Source: an uncultured Ruminococcus sp. (GTDB lineage Bacteria > Bacillota > Clostridia > Oscillospirales > Ruminococcaceae). From it: a stretch of DNA of 46,963 nt. Made by a program: the position numbers and the translations under genes. This document shows, piece after piece, positions 12,202-22,592 of this stretch. The notes under the pieces are model-generated. The model ran no database searches and had not been told where the DNA came from. It saw nothing but the letters and a program-made list of their open reading frames with translations. Position 1 is the first letter of the stretch. Each line of letters begins with the position of its first letter. The DNA is taken from positions 1 through 46,963 of the forward strand of contig CAMKMD010000029.1 in the NCBI GenBank assembly GCA_946413815.1, written 5' to 3'.

Positions 12202-13593
<1,392 letters not shown>

Positions 13594-13797: not shown

Positions 13798-13825
13798 CCT
13801 TCCATATGAGCGGAAGGCGTTTTTT
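13798..13825 (+). terminator. Terminator hairpin downstream of the ECF operon
   Basis: The stem ACGCCTTCC / GGAAGGCGT is followed by TTTTTT on the plus strand. It lies just past the 3' end of the minus-strand S-component gene, where its minus-strand U-tract is weak. It may serve both directions. Confidence 0.55.
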
Positions 13826-14510
13826 ATATCCCGTATTTAACATGGAGCCTCTCAAGCTTTTCTCCGAGGGGCCGTGAAAGCAATCCGAGGAATACCAGAT
13901 TGGAGACCACATAGGAAACGGTATAGGGTATGGCTGATATGAGTGCTGCCTTGTAGAGCGCAAGGCTGAAGCCCTGATCGTACCACAGTACAGTCCATAT
14001 ATCCATGATGAAGGAGTAGGCGAGACCTGATACCACACCGTATACCAGCAGGGGTACCATCCCCTTTTTCAGATGTTCCGAGAGCACTCCCGCAAAGAAG
14101 CCTATCATGCCCCAGGCGAGTATCTGGAATACGGTCCAGGGGCCCTGTCCGAAGTAGAAGTTGCTCAGCACCGCTGCCATAGCGCCTGTGAGGAAACCCG
14201 CCTCTGCCCCGAGGTAGAGCCCTGTCATTATGGCAAGGGCTGACACCGGCTTCAGCACCGGTATGAAGCGTCCGGCGAAGCAGAGCGCTGTCATGACGGA
14301 TACTATAACGAGCCTGCGGGTGCCTGTTGACTTTCTCTCGAAGCCCGTCACAAAGAGCAGCAGCGCAAGTGCCGCCGCCGACATGGATACGATAAGATGC
14401 TTCTGACGGTCGAACACAAGAGTGCCGAGGACTGCAAGAGCCGGTATCAGTACAAAGGGCACAGCAGCACGTATCAGACTGCGGAGGGGCCTGCTGCGTA
14501 TAACTATCAT
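13824..14510 (-). CDS. cbrT: ECF transporter S component (probable cobalamin, CbrT-like)
   Basis: The integral-membrane substrate-binding subunit of an ECF vitamin importer has 228 aa and about six hydrophobic helices. The central part GRFIPVLKPVSALAIMTG and FLTGAMAAVLSNFYFGQGPW is typical of the S-component family that pairs with a dedicated ATPase. Its start overlaps the ATPase stop by 4 bp. It is the last gene of an operon led by a cobalamin riboswitch, so a corrinoid is the best-supported substrate. The gene name is assigned from this context and from the known CbrT group, not from a search. Another cobalamin precursor, such as cobinamide or a lower-ligand base, remains possible. Confidence 0.8.
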   Translation of the reverse strand: MIVIRSRPLRSLIRAAVPFVLIPALAVLGTLVFDRQKHLIVSMSAAALALLLFVTGFERKSTGTRRLVIVSVMTALCFAGRFIPVLKPVSALAIMTGLYLGAEAGFLTGAMAAVLSNFYFGQGPWTVFQILAWGMIGFFAGVLSEHLKKGMVPLLVYGVVSGLAYSFIMDIWTVLWYDQGFSLALYKAALISAIPYTVSYVVSNLVFLGLLSRPLGEKLERLHVKYGI

Positions 14511-16135
14511 AGTCCCTCCCCTGCCATCCGGCAGACTTCAGCGGCATCGCTTACAGTAACCACTCCCGAGGCCATGCCCCTTGTCATGCGTACAGCAGCC
14601 GTAGTATAGAAGCTGTTTTCCGGGAAGAACTCCGCCGGAGTGCCGACTGATACCGCACGGCCGTTGAAAAACATGGCACAGCGGTCGGCACAGCCGGCTG
14701 CAAACTCCACATCGTGCGTTACAGTTACTATGGTGACTCCGCTTTCCCTGAGAGAGCGGAGTACTTTTATCATATTCTCCTTTGCTGCCGCATCAAGCCC
14801 CTTTGTAGGCTCGTCCAGCAGAAGGAGCTTCGGCTTCTGTGCAAGCACCTTCGCCAGCGCTGCAAGCTGCTGCTCGCCGCCGGAAAGATCGTAGGGGTGC
14901 ATATCGAGGAGATGAGTTATATCAAACGGCAGCTCCTCCGGAGTAATACCGGCGTCCTTCAGCTCCTCCCGCACAGTGCTCCTGAGGAAGACAGTCTGCA
15001 CGTCCTGGGGCAGGAGCGCAAGGCATTCCCGGTAAAGGCTCTGATTGTGGTACTCCTTAAGCTTCTTCCCGAATACCCTTATTGTACCGCTGCAGGGCTT
15101 CACAAGGGCGCAGGCCGCCGAGAGAGCTGTGGTCTTGCCGGAGCCGTTGCCGCCGAGTATGCAGAAAAGCTCCCCCCTGCCGATGCGAAGGTCAAGGCCT
15201 TTGAGCACGTCCGGCGAGGTGCGGCTGTAGCGGAAGAACACATCATCAAATTCGAGGGCAGGCTCCTCCGGGGGTGAGTACTCACTCAACGGCAGAGAGG
15301 GCCTTTTATCGCCGGTGCAGCGTGCAACGAGTTCACGCCCCTCACGCACCGTCAGAGGACACTCCCCCTCCGCACCGAGAAGAGTATGCAGCCTTGCCGC
15401 CGCCGGCATACCGCACAGAAGCTCCGGACGTTCACGCAAACCGGTTATCACCTTTCCCGGCTCTCCGTTAGCTATGAGCCTGCCGGACTCCATGACAAGA
15501 AGTCTGTCACAGCCGGGAACAGCCTCTTCAAGGCGGTGCTCCGCCATGAGTATGGTGATGCCCAGTTCCTGATTGAGCCGCTTTACCGCAGTTATGAACT
15601 CAGATGCGGCTATGGGGTCAAGCTGTGCAGTCGGCTCGTCAAGTATTACTATCTCCGGCTGCATGACGAGGACTGATGCAAGATTGAGCAGCTGCTTCTG
15701 ACCGCCGGAGAGCTTTGCCGTATCACGTTCATACCACTCCCCTATGCCGAACCAGCTTGCCGTCTCCGCAATGCGCCTTGCCGCTTTCTCCCGGGGTATA
15801 CCGAGGTTCTCCGCGCCGAATGCCAGCTCGTGCCAGACCTTGTCTGTTACTATCTGCTGCTCCGGTTTCTGCATGACATATCCTATAGCAGCAGCGGATT
15901 CACGGTCAGTGAGTTCTCCGAGGGGACGCCCGGAATACAGTATCTCACCCTTCATTTCTCCGAGGGGTGTAAGTTCTCTTTTGAGCATACGGAGAAGTGT
16001 GGATTTGCCGCTGCCGGATGCTCCGCAGAGTACGGCGAATTCGCCCTTTTCAAGGCTGAGCGTGATATCACTCAGAGCATCTCTGTCAGCCTTCGGGTAG
16101 CGGAAGCTCAGTCCGCTGACCTGTATAAGCGCCAT
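14507..16135 (-). CDS. ECF transporter fused ATPase (EcfA-EcfA'; CbrU-like)
   Basis: The protein has 542 aa with two tandem ABC ATPase domains in one chain. Domain 1 (about 1-240) has Walker A GASGSGKST (38-46), the Q-loop MQKPEQQ, signature LSGGQKQ, and Walker B VILDEPTAQLD. Domain 2 (about 290-530) has Walker A GGNGSGKTT, QDVQTVF, signature LSGGEQQ, Walker B LLLLDEPTKGLD and switch His in VTHD. It energises vitamin uptake through EcfT. Such fusions occur in dedicated ECF systems. Its 5' end overlaps the EcfT gene by 28 bp and its 3' end overlaps the S-component gene by 4 bp. Confidence 0.93.
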   Translation of the reverse strand: MALIQVSGLSFRYPKADRDALSDITLSLEKGEFAVLCGASGSGKSTLLRMLKRELTPLGEMKGEILYSGRPLGELTDRESAAAIGYVMQKPEQQIVTDKVWHELAFGAENLGIPREKAARRIAETASWFGIGEWYERDTAKLSGGQKQLLNLASVLVMQPEIVILDEPTAQLDPIAASEFITAVKRLNQELGITILMAEHRLEEAVPGCDRLLVMESGRLIANGEPGKVITGLRERPELLCGMPAAARLHTLLGAEGECPLTVREGRELVARCTGDKRPSLPLSEYSPPEEPALEFDDVFFRYSRTSPDVLKGLDLRIGRGELFCILGGNGSGKTTALSAACALVKPCSGTIRVFGKKLKEYHNQSLYRECLALLPQDVQTVFLRSTVREELKDAGITPEELPFDITHLLDMHPYDLSGGEQQLAALAKVLAQKPKLLLLDEPTKGLDAAAKENMIKVLRSLRESGVTIVTVTHDVEFAAGCADRCAMFFNGRAVSVGTPAEFFPENSFYTTAAVRMTRGMASGVVTVSDAAEVCRMAGEGL

Positions 16136-16986
16136 CTTATATCCACCTCCGTGTCAATGATAACGGGCAGCAGCACGAGTATACCGTAGGCTGCGAGCCC
16201 TGCCGCCGTGAGCGGCGTCATCCCCGGTGATACTATACGGGGATAGAAGTTAATGTCAAGCCCGTCTGCCGCCATTGCAGCTATGCACAGAGCCAGCAGT
16301 ACCAGGTCTGCTGCAAGGAAGAGCCAGTCCCAGCGGCGGAAACGGTAGTCGGTATAAGGCACTCGCTTTCCGCTGCCGTAGCCCCTTGCCTCCATGCTGT
16401 CGGCGGTGATTATACCGTTCTCCAGCGCCCATGTGATGAGTATGTCGAACACCCTGAGACTGCCCTTCACCCCGTCTATAACGTTGTCCTCCCGGTAGAG
16501 GCCGAGAGTCTTCTGGGTATCGTTTATCTTCCTTGCCTGCGCCCCGAACATGGGTACGAAGCGCACCGACATGGAGAGAGCGAGGGCGAGTTTCGGAGAG
16601 AGCGCCCCGGTTATCCGCATCAGCTTCTCGCTGGTCATTATCTCCGTGAAGCTCCTGAGCCAGTAGAGGACAGCGGCTATCATGGCAGCTGAGTTGAGTC
16701 CGTAGAGCAGGGCTTCAAGAGTGACGGGGGAATCGTTTATGACAAAGAGGACTGTCTCACCGTTATGGGATATGAGCGGATTCACGAGAGCAAGGACTGC
16801 AAAGAGGCCGAGCAGGAAGAGATGAAAGCGTGCATTCGCCCTGCCGTTGCGTTTCAGGTAGAAGAGCAGTCCCCCGGCAAGGGCGATGACAGTAACTGCC
16901 GGATGGCGGCAGAACATGGCTATGCCGGTGACTGACAGGAAGTACAGCGCTATGACTATGGGATCGTATTCCGAAAAGCTCCTCAC
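16108..16986 (-). CDS. ECF transporter transmembrane component (EcfT; CbrV-like)
   Basis: The coupling subunit between the ATPase and the S component has 292 aa. Hydrophobic helices cluster at about 10-65 and 85-110, and two more lie near the C-terminus (225-240 and 265-280). Between them is the coupling region, including SMSVRFVPMFGAQARKINDTQ and MEARGYGSGKR, which contains the Ala-Arg-Gly signature used to dock on ATPases. Its start overlaps the stop of the transcobalamin-like gene by 4 bp, so expression is coupled to it. Confidence 0.9.
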   Translation of the reverse strand: MRSFSEYDPIVIALYFLSVTGIAMFCRHPAVTVIALAGGLLFYLKRNGRANARFHLFLLGLFAVLALVNPLISHNGETVLFVINDSPVTLEALLYGLNSAAMIAAVLYWLRSFTEIMTSEKLMRITGALSPKLALALSMSVRFVPMFGAQARKINDTQKTLGLYREDNVIDGVKGSLRVFDILITWALENGIITADSMEARGYGSGKRVPYTDYRFRRWDWLFLAADLVLLALCIAAMAADGLDINFYPRIVSPGMTPLTAAGLAAYGILVLLPVIIDTEVDIRWRLYRSAD

Positions 16987-18839
16987 TTTGTTCCCTCCTG
17001 CACAAGATCGTTGCCGACCTCAAGAGTGTAGAGCCACTCTATCCTGTCGCCGTCCTGTACGATGTATTCACCGCAGCCGACAGACGGGGCAACTCCGTTG
17101 ACATGGTATATCCAGCCGGAAAGATCGCCGAACTGGAACTCATAGAGATAATCGATGCCGGCGACGTATACCATACCCGTAAAGCCTCCCCTTGAATCGG
17201 TCTGTATGCCGAAGGTACGGGCGGCGTCTGTGAGTATGGTGTATACCGAATCGCCCTCGGCGAATTCAAAGTCAGTCGTTTCAAGTATCACTCCGTCCTC
17301 AGGTATGTGCTCGGCATACTCCGAATCCTGCTGATCGGCTATGGTATCGCAGCGTATGGTCATTGATACCTTTCCGACGGCGTTCTCCTTGGTGACAGTG
17401 CCGGTGTAGTAATCCTCCGGTGAGCGTATATCCGTAAGGAGTATGACTGCTGCGGCGATCGCTGCGGCGAGCCATACTGCAAGGAAGTTCTTCCAGCTGC
17501 GCTTTCCGCAGGCAAGAAGTATCAGCGAGAGTATGACGGCGAAGGCAGCGGCTATTATAATAGCAAACGGCTTGTAGCTGCCGGATTTTTTCTGTCCTTC
17601 AATGGCCTGTGCGACTGCTGCTGTCTGTGCCGCTGTTGTGAACGTTTCCGGTACCGCAGTGCTTTCAGCGGCAGTATAGGAGGACGTCATAAAGCTGACA
17701 GATACCTCTGTCTCCGTGGGTGTCTCTGCCGTGCCTGAGACAGCTGTAACTGCCGACGATGATGCCGCAGCAGATGAAGCGGCTGTACCTGCCGGGGAAG
17801 TTACCGCTGCCGGAGCAGTGCTCTCAGCTGTGCCGGAAGGTTTTGCTGCCTGAGTTGCAGGCGGCTCTGTTGCCGGCTCAGTCACCGGGTCGGGCTGCTT
17901 GTCAAGTATCAGAAGCGGACTCCTTCCCTGCGTCATGCGCATATAGGCGACAAGGGAATAGTAGGCCTGCACCGTGGCGCTGTCGTTGAAGGAGCCGCCT
18001 TCGTTATGTGTGAAGGAACCGTCGCCGAGCCGGAATTTCAGCATACCGTCAATCGGGTTGTTGCCCTCCTTGATGAAGCGGTCGTCCTGCTGACAGTCGA
18101 TACCCAGCGCAGAGAGCGCCGTTATCACCTGTGCGGAGCTCTCCGGGTTCTCTGCCCCCATAGTCGCAAAACCGCCGGACTCGAGCTGACGCTGTGAGAG
18201 AAGCTCAAGACCTGCATTGACAGCCTGCTGTACTGCTCCGTTGTAGGGATAGTGGGGTGCAAGAGCTGTGATAGTCATGGCTGTGACATCAACATCGCCG
18301 TTCTCGCCTATTACCGCCCAGCCGCCGTCCGGCAGCTGCATGGAGAGTATACCGTTCACTACCTCTTTAGGGCTGTGGGAGCCGGAAACGCCGTTGTTGA
18401 GCAGATGCAGGCCGTAATCCCAGCTCATGATACCGAGCTGACCTATGGAGTCTGAGGCAGTGCGGGAGATGTAATCCGAGCTGCTTCCCGCCGCCTTCAG
18501 TGCGAGGGCGTACTTCTGCCTTGCCGTGGCGGAGTATACCGTCGCTGTCTCAAGGTAGGTCTCGAGCGCATTGCGGTAGGCTGAAAAATCATAGCTGCCG
18601 GACTGACTCAGACCGACGATATACCATTCCGAAGCAACGCCCGCACCCTGAGCAAGAGGGCCGTCTATCCAGTCCTGTACTCCTGCCGCACCGGAGGATG
18701 ATACCTTATATGCAACGATACCGTCGGCGAGAGACTGTATCTCACCGACGGTATGAGAAGCCGCACCGGCTGTCAGAGGAGTGCTCAGACAGAGTGCGGC
18801 TGCTGCTGTAAGGCATAGGGTAAATGCCTTAATCCTCAT
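16983..18839 (-). CDS. Transcobalamin/intrinsic-factor-like membrane-anchored protein
   Basis: Starting at the ATG at 18839 (MRIKAF..., signal peptide about 1-27), the protein has 618 aa. Residues 30-305 form an alpha/alpha-barrel-like region with prenyltransferase/squalene-cyclase-type repeats: MQLPDGGWAV (167-176), LESGGFATMG (219-228), LGDGSFTH (271-278). A Ser/Thr/Ala/Pro linker (315-415), a membrane hairpin (424-444 and 452-469, joined by CGKRSWK) and a DUF4430 domain (about 480-615; transcobalamin-like C-terminal, with SGWIYHVNGVAPSVGCGEY) follow. Barrel plus beta domain is the plan of animal intrinsic factor and transcobalamin. Both would face outside. It overlaps the upstream gene by 11 bp and the EcfT gene by 4 bp. 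Corrinoid binding is inferred from fold and riboswitch. Confidence 0.85.
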   Translation of the reverse strand: MRIKAFTLCLTAAAALCLSTPLTAGAASHTVGEIQSLADGIVAYKVSSSGAAGVQDWIDGPLAQGAGVASEWYIVGLSQSGSYDFSAYRNALETYLETATVYSATARQKYALALKAAGSSSDYISRTASDSIGQLGIMSWDYGLHLLNNGVSGSHSPKEVVNGILSMQLPDGGWAVIGENGDVDVTAMTITALAPHYPYNGAVQQAVNAGLELLSQRQLESGGFATMGAENPESSAQVITALSALGIDCQQDDRFIKEGNNPIDGMLKFRLGDGSFTHNEGGSFNDSATVQAYYSLVAYMRMTQGRSPLLILDKQPDPVTEPATEPPATQAAKPSGTAESTAPAAVTSPAGTAASSAAASSSAVTAVSGTAETPTETEVSVSFMTSSYTAAESTAVPETFTTAAQTAAVAQAIEGQKKSGSYKPFAIIIAAAFAVILSLILLACGKRSWKNFLAVWLAAAIAAAVILLTDIRSPEDYYTGTVTKENAVGKVSMTIRCDTIADQQDSEYAEHIPEDGVILETTDFEFAEGDSVYTILTDAARTFGIQTDSRGGFTGMVYVAGIDYLYEFQFGDLSGWIYHVNGVAPSVGCGEYIVQDGDRIEWLYTLEVGNDLVQEGTK

Positions 18840-19800
18840 GCTTTCTGAATGTGAATGCAGCGGCAACGGCAGCTGCACCAAGGAATGCGAATACTATTCC
18901 GGAGCTGTCACCTGTCTTGGGTGAATTGGTGTTTGCAGCTGCGGTAGTTGCAGCGGCTGTTGTGGCTGCCTTAGTTGTAGTAGGAGCTGCTGTGGAAACT
19001 GTTGTTGCAGCTGTTGTGGCAACAGTAGTTGCAACAGTTGTTGCAGCCTCGGTAGCTGCCTCTGTTGCGGGCTCTGTAGGAGCGGCAGTAGGTGCCTCAG
19101 CAGCGGGCGCAGCATTGAGTATGGCAACGGGATGTACCACTACAGCGGTATCAGATGTTGCTGATACCACATTCTTTCCGGCAGCTGCCTCGATCTCGAT
19201 ATTTCCCTCAGCATCGGTCTTGCCGACTGCTGTGCCGTTTACAGTGACTGTAGCATCTGCAAAGGGTACTGCGGAAGCTGCGCCGTCTGCGCCAAACTGT
19301 ACCTTTGAGAGCCTGAGGGTCACCTTGTCCCCCTGATTAACGTCCTTATCCCTTACATCGAAGTAGCAGTAGATATCAGACCATGCAGTCATATCGCTGT
19401 AAACATAGGCATCAAGAAAAGAGCCGTCAGCGAGCTCGTCAACAGGGCTCCATGCCATATTGCCGTTTACATAGTAGCCGTAGGAGCCGCCGTTCTCAAT
19501 GCCCCAGAGCTTTGATACCATAGGGCCGTATGTGCTCTCAGTTGTAGCAAAACCGGCAGCAGCGCCGCCCTCAAAGAACTTGTCATGTGCTATAGTGAGC
19601 GCATCTGTGACTGTGAGCTTGCCGTCATTATCCACATCTGTTACCTCTATCTTCTCCTGTGTGACAACGGGAGCATCCTTGCAGGCATTGATAGTAATGT
19701 AGGCATTTACGCTGTCTGCTGCGTTTGCAGACGGTACTGCCGCACATGAAAGTGCTGCGGCTGCGATGAGAGTGGCTGTTAATGTACTGAACTTCTTCAT
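18829..19800 (-). CDS. Sortase-anchored DUF4430 surface protein
   Basis: The protein has 323 aa. A signal peptide (about 1-27, ending SANA) is followed by a DUF4430/transcobalamin-C-like domain (about 30-150, with YGPMVSKLWGIENGGSYGYY and VNGNMAWSPV). A beta-rich segment with an Ig-like VTVNGTAVGKTDAEGNIEI, a long Ala/Thr-rich wall-spanning stalk (about 230-290) and a sortase signal follow: NSPKTGD, a hydrophobic helix, then RKHED. The SPKTG form is known for clostridial class B/D sortase substrates. It is first in the B12-riboswitch operon; AAGGAGG lies upstream of the ATG. It probably presents a corrinoid-binding domain at the wall surface; this is inference. Confidence 0.82.
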   Translation of the reverse strand: MKKFSTLTATLIAAAALSCAAVPSANAADSVNAYITINACKDAPVVTQEKIEVTDVDNDGKLTVTDALTIAHDKFFEGGAAAGFATTESTYGPMVSKLWGIENGGSYGYYVNGNMAWSPVDELADGSFLDAYVYSDMTAWSDIYCYFDVRDKDVNQGDKVTLRLSKVQFGADGAASAVPFADATVTVNGTAVGKTDAEGNIEIEAAAGKNVVSATSDTAVVVHPVAILNAAPAAEAPTAAPTEPATEAATEAATTVATTVATTAATTVSTAAPTTTKAATTAAATTAAANTNSPKTGDSSGIVFAFLGAAAVAAAFTFRKHED

Positions 19801-19811
19801 GATATCCTCCT

Positions 19812-19998
19812 TGACAATACAAAAGCCCCCTTGCGGGAGCGCAGTTATCCTTCAGCTGAGAACTGGCTGCGTTTTCCACTGTCCGAAAACCTTTGCCGGC
19901 ATACCTGACGAGCGATCCGACTCCCGGGATGACCGGACACGGCAGTGACTGCTGCGGCGGATTCTCACCGCCTTCCCTCAGCTTCAGGTTGCATTTTT
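19812..19998 (-). promoter_or_regulatory. Cobalamin (B12) riboswitch
   Basis: Read on the minus strand, the leader has the cobalamin core: GGGAAGGCGGTGAGAATCC, then GCCGCAGCAGTCACTGCCGTG, then an AGTC...GTCAGGTATGCC box. The 3' part has two possible structures: CGCAG..AGTT paired with AACTGCG, and a terminator-like CTCCC-GCAA-GGGGG hairpin followed by CTTTTGT just before the Shine-Dalgarno. Cobalamin binding should switch off the five downstream genes. Boundaries are approximate. Confidence 0.88.
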
Positions 19999-20009
19999 TG
20001 ATACACATT

Positions 20010-20038
20010 ATTATAGCACGTTGCACTATGTTTGTCAA
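20010..20038 (-). promoter_or_regulatory. Promoter of the B12 operon
   Basis: Consensus TTGACA (20033-20038), 17 nt and TATAAT (20010-20015) on the minus strand lie about 10 nt before the riboswitch. Confidence 0.85.
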
Positions 20039-20059: not shown

Positions 20060-20240
20060 CCTTTTTTGCGGGGGCGCTGCCCCCACACCCCTGCCAAAGA
20101 GGCTTCGCCTCTCTGGACTCTCATTTCAAAACCCTCCCTCCCCATAAATGGGGAGGGAGGGTTTTGCATTGGGATTCCCAAGGGACGAGTCCCTTGGGCG
20201 GGAGTTTGAGGGCAGAGCCCTCAATAAACGTCCGCTGATG
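20060..20240. repeat. Dispersed palindromic repeat, copy C, with a 16-bp hairpin
   Basis: Nested palindromes (GGGGGCGCTGCCCCC; AGAGGCTTCGCCTCT; CCCAAGGGACGAGTCCCTTGGG; GAGGGCAGAGCCCTC) and the strings CACACCCCTGCC and TGGACTC match copy A. It also holds a perfect 16-bp stem, AAAACCCTCCCTCCCC (20128-20143) with GGGGAGGGAGGGTTTT (20150-20165), loop ATAAAT. This can act as the GH26 gene's terminator on the minus strand. Confidence 0.6.
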
Positions 20241-20244
20241 ATGC

Positions 20245-22557
20245 TTAATTCTTGAGAGGCAGGTCTGTCTGCTTGACAAGGCTTGCGTCCACCTTCTGGA
20301 TAACTATGGCGTCGCTTCCGGTTATACCGGCAACTCCGTCAACATCCGCGTTGAGCTGACCTCTGTCGCCGAGATCATACTTTTCCTTGTTTGCCACGAA
20401 CTGGAGTACTGCTACAGCATCTGCAACAGTTATCTTTCCGTCGCAGTTTGCGTCGCCGTAGAAGGCGTCGGCTGCTACAGTTGTATCTGTGGGAGCAGCT
20501 GTAGTTGTAGTGCCGCTGTCCTTCTTTGTGAACACGCCTGTGATCTCGATGCCGTCCTTTGAGGCCTCTTCACCGTCGCTGTCGGAAGCCCACCAGATCT
20601 GTCCCTCGAAGGATGTGATATCTGCGAGAGCAGCCTTTGCTGCCTCGATGATGGCCTCGTCCTCTACCTCAGTGGTGCCGTCTGAGCAGTTGAGGAAGTT
20701 CTTCTCAGGCACCACCTTAACGTCACCTGACTTTGTAGCCTCCCACATGATATTTGCCCAGTAGTCCTTGCCGTCCACCTTTACGTTAGTACCGAGTCCG
20801 CCGTTTGCGTAGGTCACGCCCTCCGGAAGCTCTACCTCGAGATAGAATTCCTTTGCAGCCTCAGGGAGAGTTACCTGATAGGAGCTCTTGACTTTTCTTA
20901 CCTTGCCCTCGTTCTTTGTAGGATCGGGAGCCTTTGTGGTAGTTGTGACATTCGGGTCAGCTGTGGTAACAGCGGGCTTTGTCACTGTTACAGCGGGATC
21001 AGCGCTGCCGGGATCTGTTGAATACAGGTCTGCCGGGAGCTCGTCAAGGGTTATGCAGTAATCGCTCTGATACATTGCGATAGTATCTTCCTTGGTATTG
21101 AAGACTTCTCCGGAAAGGAAGTTGGTGTCCTGTGAGCCGCCGTCATACCATGTGCAGAAGTAGAGCCAGCCCGCCTTGTCGTTCTGGAGCTTTTCCGGAG
21201 TTGAGAAGCAGTCGTTCTCAGCCATGGATATCATTTTCGCATTGTCGTACTTCTCTGCGATACCGTAGAAGGTGGAGGCTATGGGGCTGTCGTTGTGCTT
21301 TAATACTGCGCTTCCTGTTGACCAGTCGGTGCAGCTGTACTTATCGTAGCCGATGATATCAACATAGGCATCGCCGGGGTACCAGTCAGCTGATGTGGAG
21401 AAGTTATAGCTGTTCCACTCCCAAATAAGGTTGTGGCAGCCGAAGGTCTCTGTCAGGGTATTGTAGGTGTATATCCAGAGCTTCTTGTATACATCAGAAC
21501 CCTCTCTGCCCCACCAGAACCAGGAGCCGTTCTCTCCGCCGCCGCCCTCGGCTTCGTGGAGAGGTCTCCAGATAACGGGCACACCCTCAGCCTCAAGCTT
21601 CTTGAACTCCTTGGCCAGAGTTTCAAGAGCCTGCATATAGTATTCATTCTCCTTGGTTCCGGGAGTTGCAGCATTCTCCGGTGAGAAGTCTGTATCCTTT
21701 GCGCCGTAGGTGGTGTTGGACCAGTCGATGCGGTCGCCTATGCTGTAGGATGCGAAGTTCTTGGGTACGTTGAGGTGGAAGGAGGAGGTAGCGATACCGT
21801 TCTTCTCCTTTACCCAGTCTATGACTCTCCTGGTCGAGCCGTCATCGCTGCCGAAAGCAGGGCAGCAGAAGTTGCCGTAATCGAAGCCTCTGATAGCCGG
21901 ATAGTGGCCGGTGAGGTCCTTGAGGTACTCAAACTCTGTCTCCAGGCCATGAGGGCCGCCGCTGTATATCTCCTGCTGACCGGAGATGATGTTCTTTCCG
22001 TATACACTTGCAAGGTATGCCATCAGAGCCCTTGTCTCCTTGGTAGCCTTGCTGTCGGAAGGATAGATCTGCTTTGCGGAGATCTTTGCATCAGCCATGG
22101 AGATAAGCTCAACATAGTCGAAGTTGCTCCAGCCCCATGACTTGGTGATGGTGATGGTGTTCTCGCCTTCTTTGAGGGTAACAGCCGGAACTGATATCTT
22201 CTCGAAGCCGTTGCTCTCAGGGATTCCTATGGCGCCCTGATCCGTGCCGTTTACTGCAAGGTTGTTCTGCTTGTCGGAGCCTATTCCGCCTGCATAGAAC
22301 ACGAGCTGATAGGAGCCCGCCGCCGGAGCTGTTACAGTAAGATCGATAGTGCCCGACTCCGTCATCTTCAGGCACTTCTCACCGCTTGCAGAAGCATTTT
22401 CCTCAACGGTAACATCTCCGCTGATCTTAGCGTCCTCGAACTCGAACCTGAGTTCTCCGGCTGCTACAGTAACACCCATCACGCTTGCTGCCGCATTGAC
22501 CGACATTGCAGCTGCCATAAGAGCCGCACTTGTTCTTCTTAATAATCCTGATCTCAT
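20245..22557 (-). CDS. Cellulosomal GH26 beta-mannanase with CBM35 and dockerin
   Basis: This secreted enzyme should cut beta-mannan in plant cell walls. The protein has 770 aa from the ATG at 22557, which has GGAGG 8 nt upstream; the in-frame ATG at 22572 lies within that site. Signal peptide (about 1-33); CBM35-like module (about 36-155, LRFEFEDAKISG...WGWSNFDYVELIS); GH26 domain (about 155-500) with acid/base Glu about 334 in WRPLHEAEGG and probable nucleophile Glu about 447 in MAENDC; Thr/Pro linker; an unassigned beta-sandwich, possibly a carbohydrate-binding module (about 560-680); type I dockerin (about 698-765, DANCDGKITVADAV and LNADVDGVAGITGSDAI). The second dockerin loop is less canonical. 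A single-gene unit with its own promoter. Confidence 0.93.
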   Translation of the reverse strand: MRSGLLRRTSAALMAAAMSVNAAASVMGVTVAAGELRFEFEDAKISGDVTVEENASASGEKCLKMTESGTIDLTVTAPAAGSYQLVFYAGGIGSDKQNNLAVNGTDQGAIGIPESNGFEKISVPAVTLKEGENTITITKSWGWSNFDYVELISMADAKISAKQIYPSDSKATKETRALMAYLASVYGKNIISGQQEIYSGGPHGLETEFEYLKDLTGHYPAIRGFDYGNFCCPAFGSDDGSTRRVIDWVKEKNGIATSSFHLNVPKNFASYSIGDRIDWSNTTYGAKDTDFSPENAATPGTKENEYYMQALETLAKEFKKLEAEGVPVIWRPLHEAEGGGGENGSWFWWGREGSDVYKKLWIYTYNTLTETFGCHNLIWEWNSYNFSTSADWYPGDAYVDIIGYDKYSCTDWSTGSAVLKHNDSPIASTFYGIAEKYDNAKMISMAENDCFSTPEKLQNDKAGWLYFCTWYDGGSQDTNFLSGEVFNTKEDTIAMYQSDYCITLDELPADLYSTDPGSADPAVTVTKPAVTTADPNVTTTTKAPDPTKNEGKVRKVKSSYQVTLPEAAKEFYLEVELPEGVTYANGGLGTNVKVDGKDYWANIMWEATKSGDVKVVPEKNFLNCSDGTTEVEDEAIIEAAKAALADITSFEGQIWWASDSDGEEASKDGIEITGVFTKKDSGTTTTAAPTDTTVAADAFYGDANCDGKITVADAVAVLQFVANKEKYDLGDRGQLNADVDGVAGITGSDAIVIQKVDASLVKQTDLPLKN

Positions 22558-22592
22558 TAAGACCGCCTCCATCGAGATTAATTTATACTTTA

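What the first reader, a model, noticed from the sequence alone, without database searches (positions are those of the whole stretch)
16983..20038. Bacterial intrinsic-factor-like B12 capture operon feeding an ECF transporter
A consensus promoter and cobalamin riboswitch lead five minus-strand genes. The first encodes a sortase-anchored (SPKTGD) DUF4430 protein. The second encodes a signal peptide, an alpha/alpha barrel of prenyltransferase-type repeats, a membrane hairpin and a DUF4430 domain. Barrel plus DUF4430 (transcobalamin-like C-terminal domain) is the two-domain plan of mammalian intrinsic factor and transcobalamin. EcfT, a fused EcfA-EcfA' and an S component follow, all overlapping. 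Seen: domain motifs, riboswitch core, overlaps. Known: DUF4430 is the transcobalamin-like C-terminal family, and ECF-CbrT imports B12. Inferred: the two surface proteins bind corrinoid and hand it to the transporter. A wall-anchored catcher plus a membrane-anchored two-domain receptor would be a Gram-positive parallel to BtuG/BtuB of Bacteroides.
Basis: partly seen in the sequence, partly recalled or inferred. Interest (0 to 1): 0.9.

Follow-up and report, generated by a model that had tools for sequence, protein, structure and literature searches.

The report
Intrinsic-factor-like B12 receptor beside ECF importer
A relative of rumen Ruminococcus carries a five-gene operon whose second protein is predicted to fold like human intrinsic factor and would likely catch vitamin B12 outside the cell and hand it to the importer encoded beside it, which matters because importers of this class are thought to need no such outside helper.

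Summary
Five overlapping minus-strand genes follow a 12-of-12 promoter, a cobalamin-type leader and a terminator-like hairpin. B's model has both intrinsic-factor domains: its 15 best Foldseek matches in PDB are all transcobalamin, intrinsic factor or haptocorrin, though the arrangement of the two domains is not reproduced. Gene A carries only the second domain, seen by fold, not by Pfam. The S component's closest solved relative is CbrT. The leader is below Rfam's cut-off, but its own covarying model matches leaders that Rfam calls cobalamin or AdoCbl-II. Of 80 named loci, 65 keep the order A-B-EcfT-EcfAA'-S. Of 80 DUF4430 places in the bacterial family, 65 have a CbrT-like S gene within 6 kb on the same strand. 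The core idea is published: Burroughs et al. 2007 proposed toroid plus transcobalamin-like surface proteins, in operons with CbiO/CbiQ-like genes, as B12 scavengers. New against the text I saw: the membrane hairpin between the domains, the riboswitch and CbrT links, and two-gene B+S and DUF4430+S cassettes. Corrinoid binding and hand-over are inferred. Verdict: a well-supported new variant of a predicted kind.

The parts
20010..20038 (-). sigma-70 consensus promoter TTGACA-17-TATAAT
   Evidence: 12 of 12 matches; shuffles give 0.4 promoter-like sites on average
19899..19991 (-). divergent cobalamin-type riboswitch aptamer
   Evidence: RF00174 14.6 bits, below gathering 31.5; own model R1 100.9 bits, but the window is one of its 27 training rows; 45 cells with a change on both sides against 13.7 in shuffles
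19825..19840 (-). intrinsic-terminator-like hairpin followed by T-rich tail, between aptamer and gene A
   Evidence: 2 sites found on both strands, 0.5 in shuffles; a like element after the aptamer in 35 of 41 leaders against 1.8 expected from mononucleotide shuffles
18829..19800 (-). gene A, 323 aa wall-anchored surface protein
19378..19716 (-). A residues 29-141: beta-grasp domain like the transcobalamin C-terminal domain
19603..19638 (-). A residues 55-66: DxDxDG calcium-type loop at the start of the beta-grasp helix
   Evidence: D55 in 43, D57 in 41, D59 in 43, D66 in 43 of the 44 sequences of alignment A2; weak Dockerin_1 match 0.073; calcium binding is inferred
18907..18924 (-). sorting signal SPKTGD of A, followed by hydrophobic stretch and charged tail
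   Evidence: NCBIfam LPXTG_anchor
16983..18839 (-). gene B, 618 aa intrinsic-factor-like membrane-tethered receptor
17907..18761 (-). B residues 27-311: alpha/alpha toroid
17436..17573 (-). B residues 423-468: two-helix membrane hairpin with conserved KRxxKN loop (446-451)
   Evidence: both helices hydrophobic in 60 of 60 sequences of A1; K446 in 57, R447 in 56, K450 in 59, N451 in 59 of 60
17025..17375 (-). B residues 489-605: DUF4430 / transcobalamin C-terminal-like domain
   Evidence: PF14478 1.6e-13; matches to the isolated transcobalamin beta domain 5no0 and 5np4
16108..16986 (-). EcfT
   Evidence: PF02361 CbiQ 2.8e-11
14507..16135 (-). EcfA-EcfA' fusion, two ABC ATPase domains
   Evidence: PF00005 two stretches; TIGR04520 ECF_ATPase_1 1.8e-99
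13824..14510 (-). CbrT-like S component
   Evidence: 6fnp_A (ECF-CbrT) 8.1e-9 alone and 1e-11 as family profile; best Pfam name is ECF-ribofla_trS 2.7e-8

Best explanation
The operon encodes a surface capture-and-import machine that is likely for vitamin B12 or other corrinoids: B, a membrane-tethered protein predicted to fold like intrinsic factor, would clamp the ligand outside the membrane and pass it to the CbrT-like S component of an ECF transporter encoded beside it. Shown: gene order, overlaps, domain content, predicted folds, the conserved cobalamin-type leader with a terminator-like hairpin, and the conserved neighbourhood. Inferred: with enough B12 inside, the leader folds so that transcription stops before gene A; when B12 is short, A and B are made. 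A sits in the wall as a first, single-domain catcher. B's toroid and DUF4430 domains, both outside and joined through a two-helix membrane hairpin, close on the corrinoid. The hairpin, with its conserved KRxxKN cytoplasmic loop, may hold B next to the S component or EcfT. The S component takes over the ligand and the EcfT-EcfAA' module drives import.
Confidence: 0.76

Rival explanations
1. The machine takes up a corrinoid precursor or another cobamide, such as cobinamide, rather than B12 itself; architecture and mechanism are otherwise the same.
For: The genome has CobC-, CbiB-, CobD- and CobQ-like genes, CbiC, a CbiK-like chelatase and CobS, so it could finish or remodel precursors. [quoted passage not shown]
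Against: Nothing in the data speaks for a precursor over B12. The cobalamin leader fits either.
Confidence: 0.13
2. The ligand is not a corrinoid: the system imports cobalt or a different vitamin or cofactor, and the transcobalamin-like fold is only a shared scaffold.
For: EcfT is named cobalt transport protein CbiQ and S is named riboflavin S component in Pfam. SLBB domains are proposed to bind varied ligands (PMC1796856, abstract and section 7). 3u7z, a solved domain of this kind, is labelled putative metal binding protein. The domains superpose only one by one.
Against: Those Pfam names are general for ECF parts (recalled). The only S proteins of solved structure that match at E 10 or better are CbrT and, weakly, 4hzu. 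Cobalamin-type leaders recur. A two-domain B12-clamp plan is hard to explain for free cobalt.
Confidence: 0.06
3. A and B only hoard or bind corrinoid, or act as adhesins, and do not hand ligand to the transporter.
For: One database names a relative of B surface/cell-adhesion protein (P0007). A is wall-anchored. CbrT can work alone (recalled).
Against: B stays with S in loci that lack A, EcfT and EcfAA' nearby (L146, L154, L155 = L041, L156, L049), and 37 of 80 DUF4430 places have an S gene within 150 bases. Such pairing favours direct cooperation.
Confidence: 0.07

Closest known systems
Bacterial transcobalamin-like SLBB proteins (Burroughs et al. 2007, PMC1796856)
   Same: Secreted or anchored SLBB proteins, toroid fused N-terminal to SLBB, a second paralogous SLBB gene, operons with CbiO-like and CbiQ-like genes, proposed role in B12 scavenging (section 7 part 1 read)
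   Different: The passages seen name no membrane hairpin between the domains (three of 15 word places were not shown and figures are not held); the words riboswitch and ECF do not occur in its text; it says hosts usually lack key B12 synthesis enzymes, whereas this genome has CbiC and CobS
Mammalian intrinsic factor, transcobalamin, haptocorrin
   Same: Two-domain plan, toroid then beta-grasp, each domain matched
   Different: B has a membrane hairpin between the domains and sits beside an importer; the domain arrangement is not reproduced in the model; no sequence-level match; the animal proteins are soluble and taken up through receptors such as CD320 and cubilin (recalled; both named in PDB titles)
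ECF-CbrT of Lactobacillus delbrueckii (6FNP)
   Same: S component is homologous, 1e-11 as profile; EcfT and two ATPase halves present
   Different: Dedicated EcfT and fused EcfA-EcfA' in one operon with S, plus two surface proteins; in L. delbrueckii CbrT and FolT2 share one ECF module (PMC5997447, passage)
BtuG/BtuB and BtuH of Bacteroides
   Same: Surface B12-binding protein near a B12 importer; [quoted passage not shown]
   Different: BtuG is a beta-propeller (PMC6977713, passage); BtuH was not compared with A or B here; Bacteroides systems work at an outer membrane

Membership tests
Transcobalamin / intrinsic factor fold family (for B) | alpha/alpha toroid followed by beta-grasp domain | tested here: met
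Transcobalamin / intrinsic factor fold family (for B) | same arrangement of the two domains around the ligand | tested here: inconclusive
   TM-scores by query 0.24-0.35 and rmsd 11.6-19.6 A in the 15 rows; linker and hairpin of low confidence between the domains
Transcobalamin / intrinsic factor fold family (for B) | detectable sequence homology to animal members | tested here: inconclusive
   hhalign 0.8% against three transcobalamins (shallow template); A1 profile finds none in PDB
Transcobalamin / intrinsic factor fold family (for B) | binds cobalamin between the two domains | not testable with these tools
   no ligand modelling or assay
PF14478 DUF4430 (for B) | score over curated cut-off | tested here: met
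   51.3 against 23.8 bits
PF14478 DUF4430 (for A) | score over curated cut-off | tested here: not met
   no match at E 1; fold match only
RF00174 cobalamin riboswitch (leader) | score over gathering score | tested here: not met
   14.6 against 31.5 bits; none at gathering
Cobalamin riboswitch clan (leader), as relative | homology to members called by Rfam | tested here: met
   R1 overlaps RF00174 in L051 and RF01689 in L034, both outside its training set; it does not reach E 1e-3 on the seven named RF00174-type leaders
Cobalamin riboswitch clan (leader), as relative | conserved structure with compensatory changes | tested here: met
   8 pairs changed on both sides (2 of 500 shuffles reach it), 45 such cells (0 of 500), but further pair types are not exceptional (162 of 500)
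ECF transporter with own operon | EcfT, two ATPase domains and an S component together | tested here: met
CbrT | closest solved S component is CbrT | tested here: met
   8.1e-9 and 1e-11
CbrT | transports cobalamin | not testable with these tools
   needs assay
Sortase-anchored surface proteins (for A) | LPXTG-type motif, hydrophobic stretch, charged tail | tested here: met
   TIGR01167 20.4 over 15.9 bits; Pfam PF00746 below its cut-off
BtuG | beta-propeller fold | tested here: not met
   the B model is mostly helical with a small C-terminal sheet; the folded part of A is accounted for by a beta-grasp and an Ig- or Fn3-like domain

The most novel reading that the evidence does not exclude
A receptor-assisted ECF transporter: B is a membrane-embedded intrinsic factor whose two outside domains close on the corrinoid and whose hairpin, with its conserved KRxxKN cytoplasmic loop, docks on the CbrT-like S component, breaking the rule that ECF importers work without an extracellular binding protein. 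The B+S and DUF4430+S two-gene cassettes would be its minimal forms.
Probability: 0.45. Interest if true: 0.82.

Novelty: new variant of a known kind. Interest (0 to 1): 0.58.

Why it matters
How Gram-positive gut bacteria catch B12 is poorly known; [quoted passage not shown] If the reading is right, many rumen and gut bacteria use the same two-domain plan as animals do, and ECF importers can have dedicated outside receptors. It makes the 2007 proposal, including a Gram-positive origin of animal B12 carriers, testable with one gene pair.

Tried and rejected
Rfam at gathering score on the window: nothing. Micro-RNA and other matches near 20110-20185: taken as chance hits on a long hairpin. hhalign of B against A and of B's toroid against transcobalamin: no usable alignment. 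I recalled transcobalamin B12-contact residues (Asp176, Asn224, Gln273) and saw look-alike residues in B, but the profile alignment did not support them, and DxDTA-like motifs are common in toroids (recalled); not used. A paper search for them found nothing. PDB sequence search with A's profile: no match. Foldseek alone for A: no match at E 0.001, Ig-like domains and antibodies first. One S gene picked in L078 was the wrong reading frame and is not used; five further S-like proteins of small loci had no Pfam match at E 0.01, only the one of L070 was tested against PDB. RF00174 hits of 86.6 bits in the genome of L123 and 100.4 bits in that of L117 fall in range by coordinates but probably lie on other contigs; not counted. 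Novelty searches: (DUF4430, transcobalamin-like, CbrT, surface and ECF terms). I opened eight papers, by passages or one section each; only PMC1796856 describes this kind in what I saw. That is not proof of absence: subscription papers and preprints are not held.

Rows dropped before counts: one search used 80 of the 90 DUF4430 places (left out: the window's own, eight second places in the same operons, one place not fetched). One search used the 150 listed RF00174 rows (38.9 bits and more); weaker ones were not listed. One search covered 70 of 80 named loci (those with gene A); the other ten were searched. One search used the window and 40 of the 47 named R1 hits. One search covered 40 of 80 named genomes. 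A3 holds 27 of the 35 leaders found by motif. Named loci are the best 80 of 483. Three loci were fetched twice under two names: L041 = L155, L047 = L111, L052 = L142.
Full report
WHAT IS THERE. Behind a 12-of-12 sigma-70 promoter at 20038-20010 lie five minus-strand genes: A (18829-19800, 323 aa), B (16983-18839 from its ATG, 618 aa), EcfT (16108-16986), a fused EcfA-EcfA' (14507-16135) and an S component (13824-14510). Each overlaps the next, by 11, 4, 28 and 4 bases. Pfam gives CbiQ for EcfT (2.8e-11), two ABC stretches for EcfAA', DUF4430 at the C-terminus of B (1.6e-13) and ECF-ribofla_trS for the last gene (2.7e-8). A bears an SPKTGD sorting signal. Upstream on the same strand is a GH26/CBM35 protein with a dockerin-like end (20245-22572), downstream and on the other strand a glutamate dehydrogenase type protein (12226-13593).

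S COMPONENT. The only solved S protein that matches the window's S is CbrT, 6fnp, 8.1e-9. A profile of 15 sequences gives 6fnp 1e-11; the next S protein, 4hzu_S, scores 0.021. This tells kinship, not substrate.

LEADER. Rfam finds no riboswitch at gathering score; relaxed, it gives RF00174 14.6 bits at 19871-19976. The whole leader folds no better than many of its shuffles (z -1.45). I aligned 27 such leaders (A3). With an 18-pair structure that I drew from this alignment, 94.7% of cells pair; 45 cells change on both sides against 13.7 in shuffles, none of 500 reaching it; further pair types are not exceptional (162 of 500); sliding the partners destroys the pairing. The structure was derived from these sequences, so the slid control leans its way. 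Model R1 then finds the AdoCbl-II site of L034 (57.3 bits; Rfam 36.8 over 36.5) and the RF00174 site of L051 (46.9 bits; Rfam 52.2), neither used in training. Of 70 named loci with gene A, 47 have an R1 match at E<=1e-3 upstream of A (26 are training rows; positions checked, where L144 needs its second domain match to be read right), and 7 more have RF00174 over cut-off before the operon (in L151 before EcfT): 54 of 70. R1 itself reaches only E 0.015-0.93 on five of those seven and misses two, so there are two leader types. In the other 16 none was found; five of these were also scanned by Rfam at E 1 without a cobalamin hit. A terminator-like hairpin follows the aptamer in 35 of 41 leaders examined against 1.8 in mononucleotide shuffles, in the window at 19840-19825. 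This points to transcription control; the direction (B12 turns it off) is inferred from known cobalamin riboswitches.

NEIGHBOURHOOD. In the best 80 of 483 named genome loci the plus-strand order is A-B-T-E-S in 65, B-T-E-S in 6, B-S in 4, cut or other forms in 5. Order is not always tight adjacency: in L186 A lies 3.8 kb before B, and in L165, L177 and L181 S lies 0.7-2.5 kb after EcfAA'. Nearest is a rumen Ruminococcus at 93%. In the bacterial family, DUF4430 occurs in 73 of 148 genomes. Of 82 clusters 32 have a listed RF00174 hit upstream on the same strand within 8 kb, and no listed hit lies within 8 kb downstream or on the other strand. Of 80 places examined 65 have a CbrT-like S gene within 6 kb on the same strand: 29 with a listed riboswitch, 36 without; 3 have the riboswitch only and 12 neither. 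Those are all 65 S hits in the 1.06 Mb of fetched family stretches; random stretches of these genomes were not searched. The S profile was built from the window's S and a second S type, so it covers two subgroups; the two types are about 16-24% identical. In 37 of 80 places the S gene lies within 150 bases; the one small-locus S tested against PDB matches 6fnp at 5.4e-12. Five distinct loci carry B and S without A, EcfT or EcfAA' found nearby and without a cobalamin leader (L146, L154, L155 = L041, L156, L049).

GENOME. G000 has one RF00174 match over cut-off. It lies between a CbiC and a CbiK-like gene, in a cluster with CobC-, CbiB-, CobD- and CobQ-like genes before it and a periplasmic-binding-protein gene and BtuC- and BtuD-like genes after it; CobS is nearby. 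Several of these pass below NCBIfam's curated cut-offs (CobC, CobD, CbiK, BtuC, BtuD), so the names are by likeness. B12-binding domains are present in all 8 genomes tested; CbiC in 4 of 8. So the operon is a second corrinoid route, not a sole one, and differs from the 2007 remark that hosts usually lack key synthesis enzymes.

PRIOR ART. Burroughs et al. 2007 (PMC1796856; abstract, passages and the first of two parts of section 7 read) described bacterial toroid-SLBB fusions, Gram-positive anchors, paralogous second SLBB genes and operons with CbiO- and CbiQ-like genes, and proposed B12 scavenging. A UniRef name of this kind (Transcobalamin-like C-terminal) is already given to a relative of B (P0078). 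The BtuH paper mentions a btuH homologue near an ECF-like cobamide transporter in Eubacterium siraeum (passage). The idea is therefore known as a prediction; I saw no experiment on it in the eight papers opened or the listings. What this case adds: the hairpin architecture, the leader class with its terminator, the frequent S neighbour, the two-gene cassettes and a PDB-wide fold test.

VERDICT. A real, conserved corrinoid capture-and-import operon by strong inference; new variant of a predicted kind. Binding and hand-over remain to be measured.

Noticed in passing
window 20110-20185: Long G-rich inverted repeat between the GH26 gene and the operon promoter, giving chance micro-RNA matches in Rfam; possibly the terminator of the upstream gene.
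   Followed up: no
window 20245-22572: GH26 plus CBM35 protein with a dockerin-like C-terminus (Dockerin_1 below cut-off): a cellulosome-type enzyme just upstream on the same strand.
   Followed up: no
L070 6802-7722; similar in L071, L073, L074, L083: Two-gene cassettes of a small DUF4430 protein and an S component like CbrT; those of L070, L071, L073 and L074 lie behind cobalamin riboswitches over cut-off.
   Followed up: partly
L146, L154, L155 (= L041), L156, L049: B next to S without A, EcfT or EcfAA' found nearby and without detectable cobalamin leader; presumably they use a shared ECF module.
   Followed up: partly
L031, L035, L036, L039, L050, L053: Very long open frames (stop to stop about 1,070 to 2,000 aa) that match B lie in related operons behind cobalamin riboswitches.
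   Followed up: no
L034 11366-11443, L042 7674-7749: Rfam's best leader match is AdoCbl-II, over cut-off in L034 (36.8 bits) and below it in L042 (27.3 of 36.5), so leaders of one orthologous operon span two Rfam families.
   Followed up: partly
alignment A3, columns 50 and 85: G/A in one and A/G in the other of two leader positions seem to change together without forming a standard pair (read by eye).
   Followed up: no
L190 5303-10642 (genome contig C4): CbiK-like, periplasmic-binding-protein and BtuCD-like genes right after the genome's one strong cobalamin riboswitch.
   Followed up: partly
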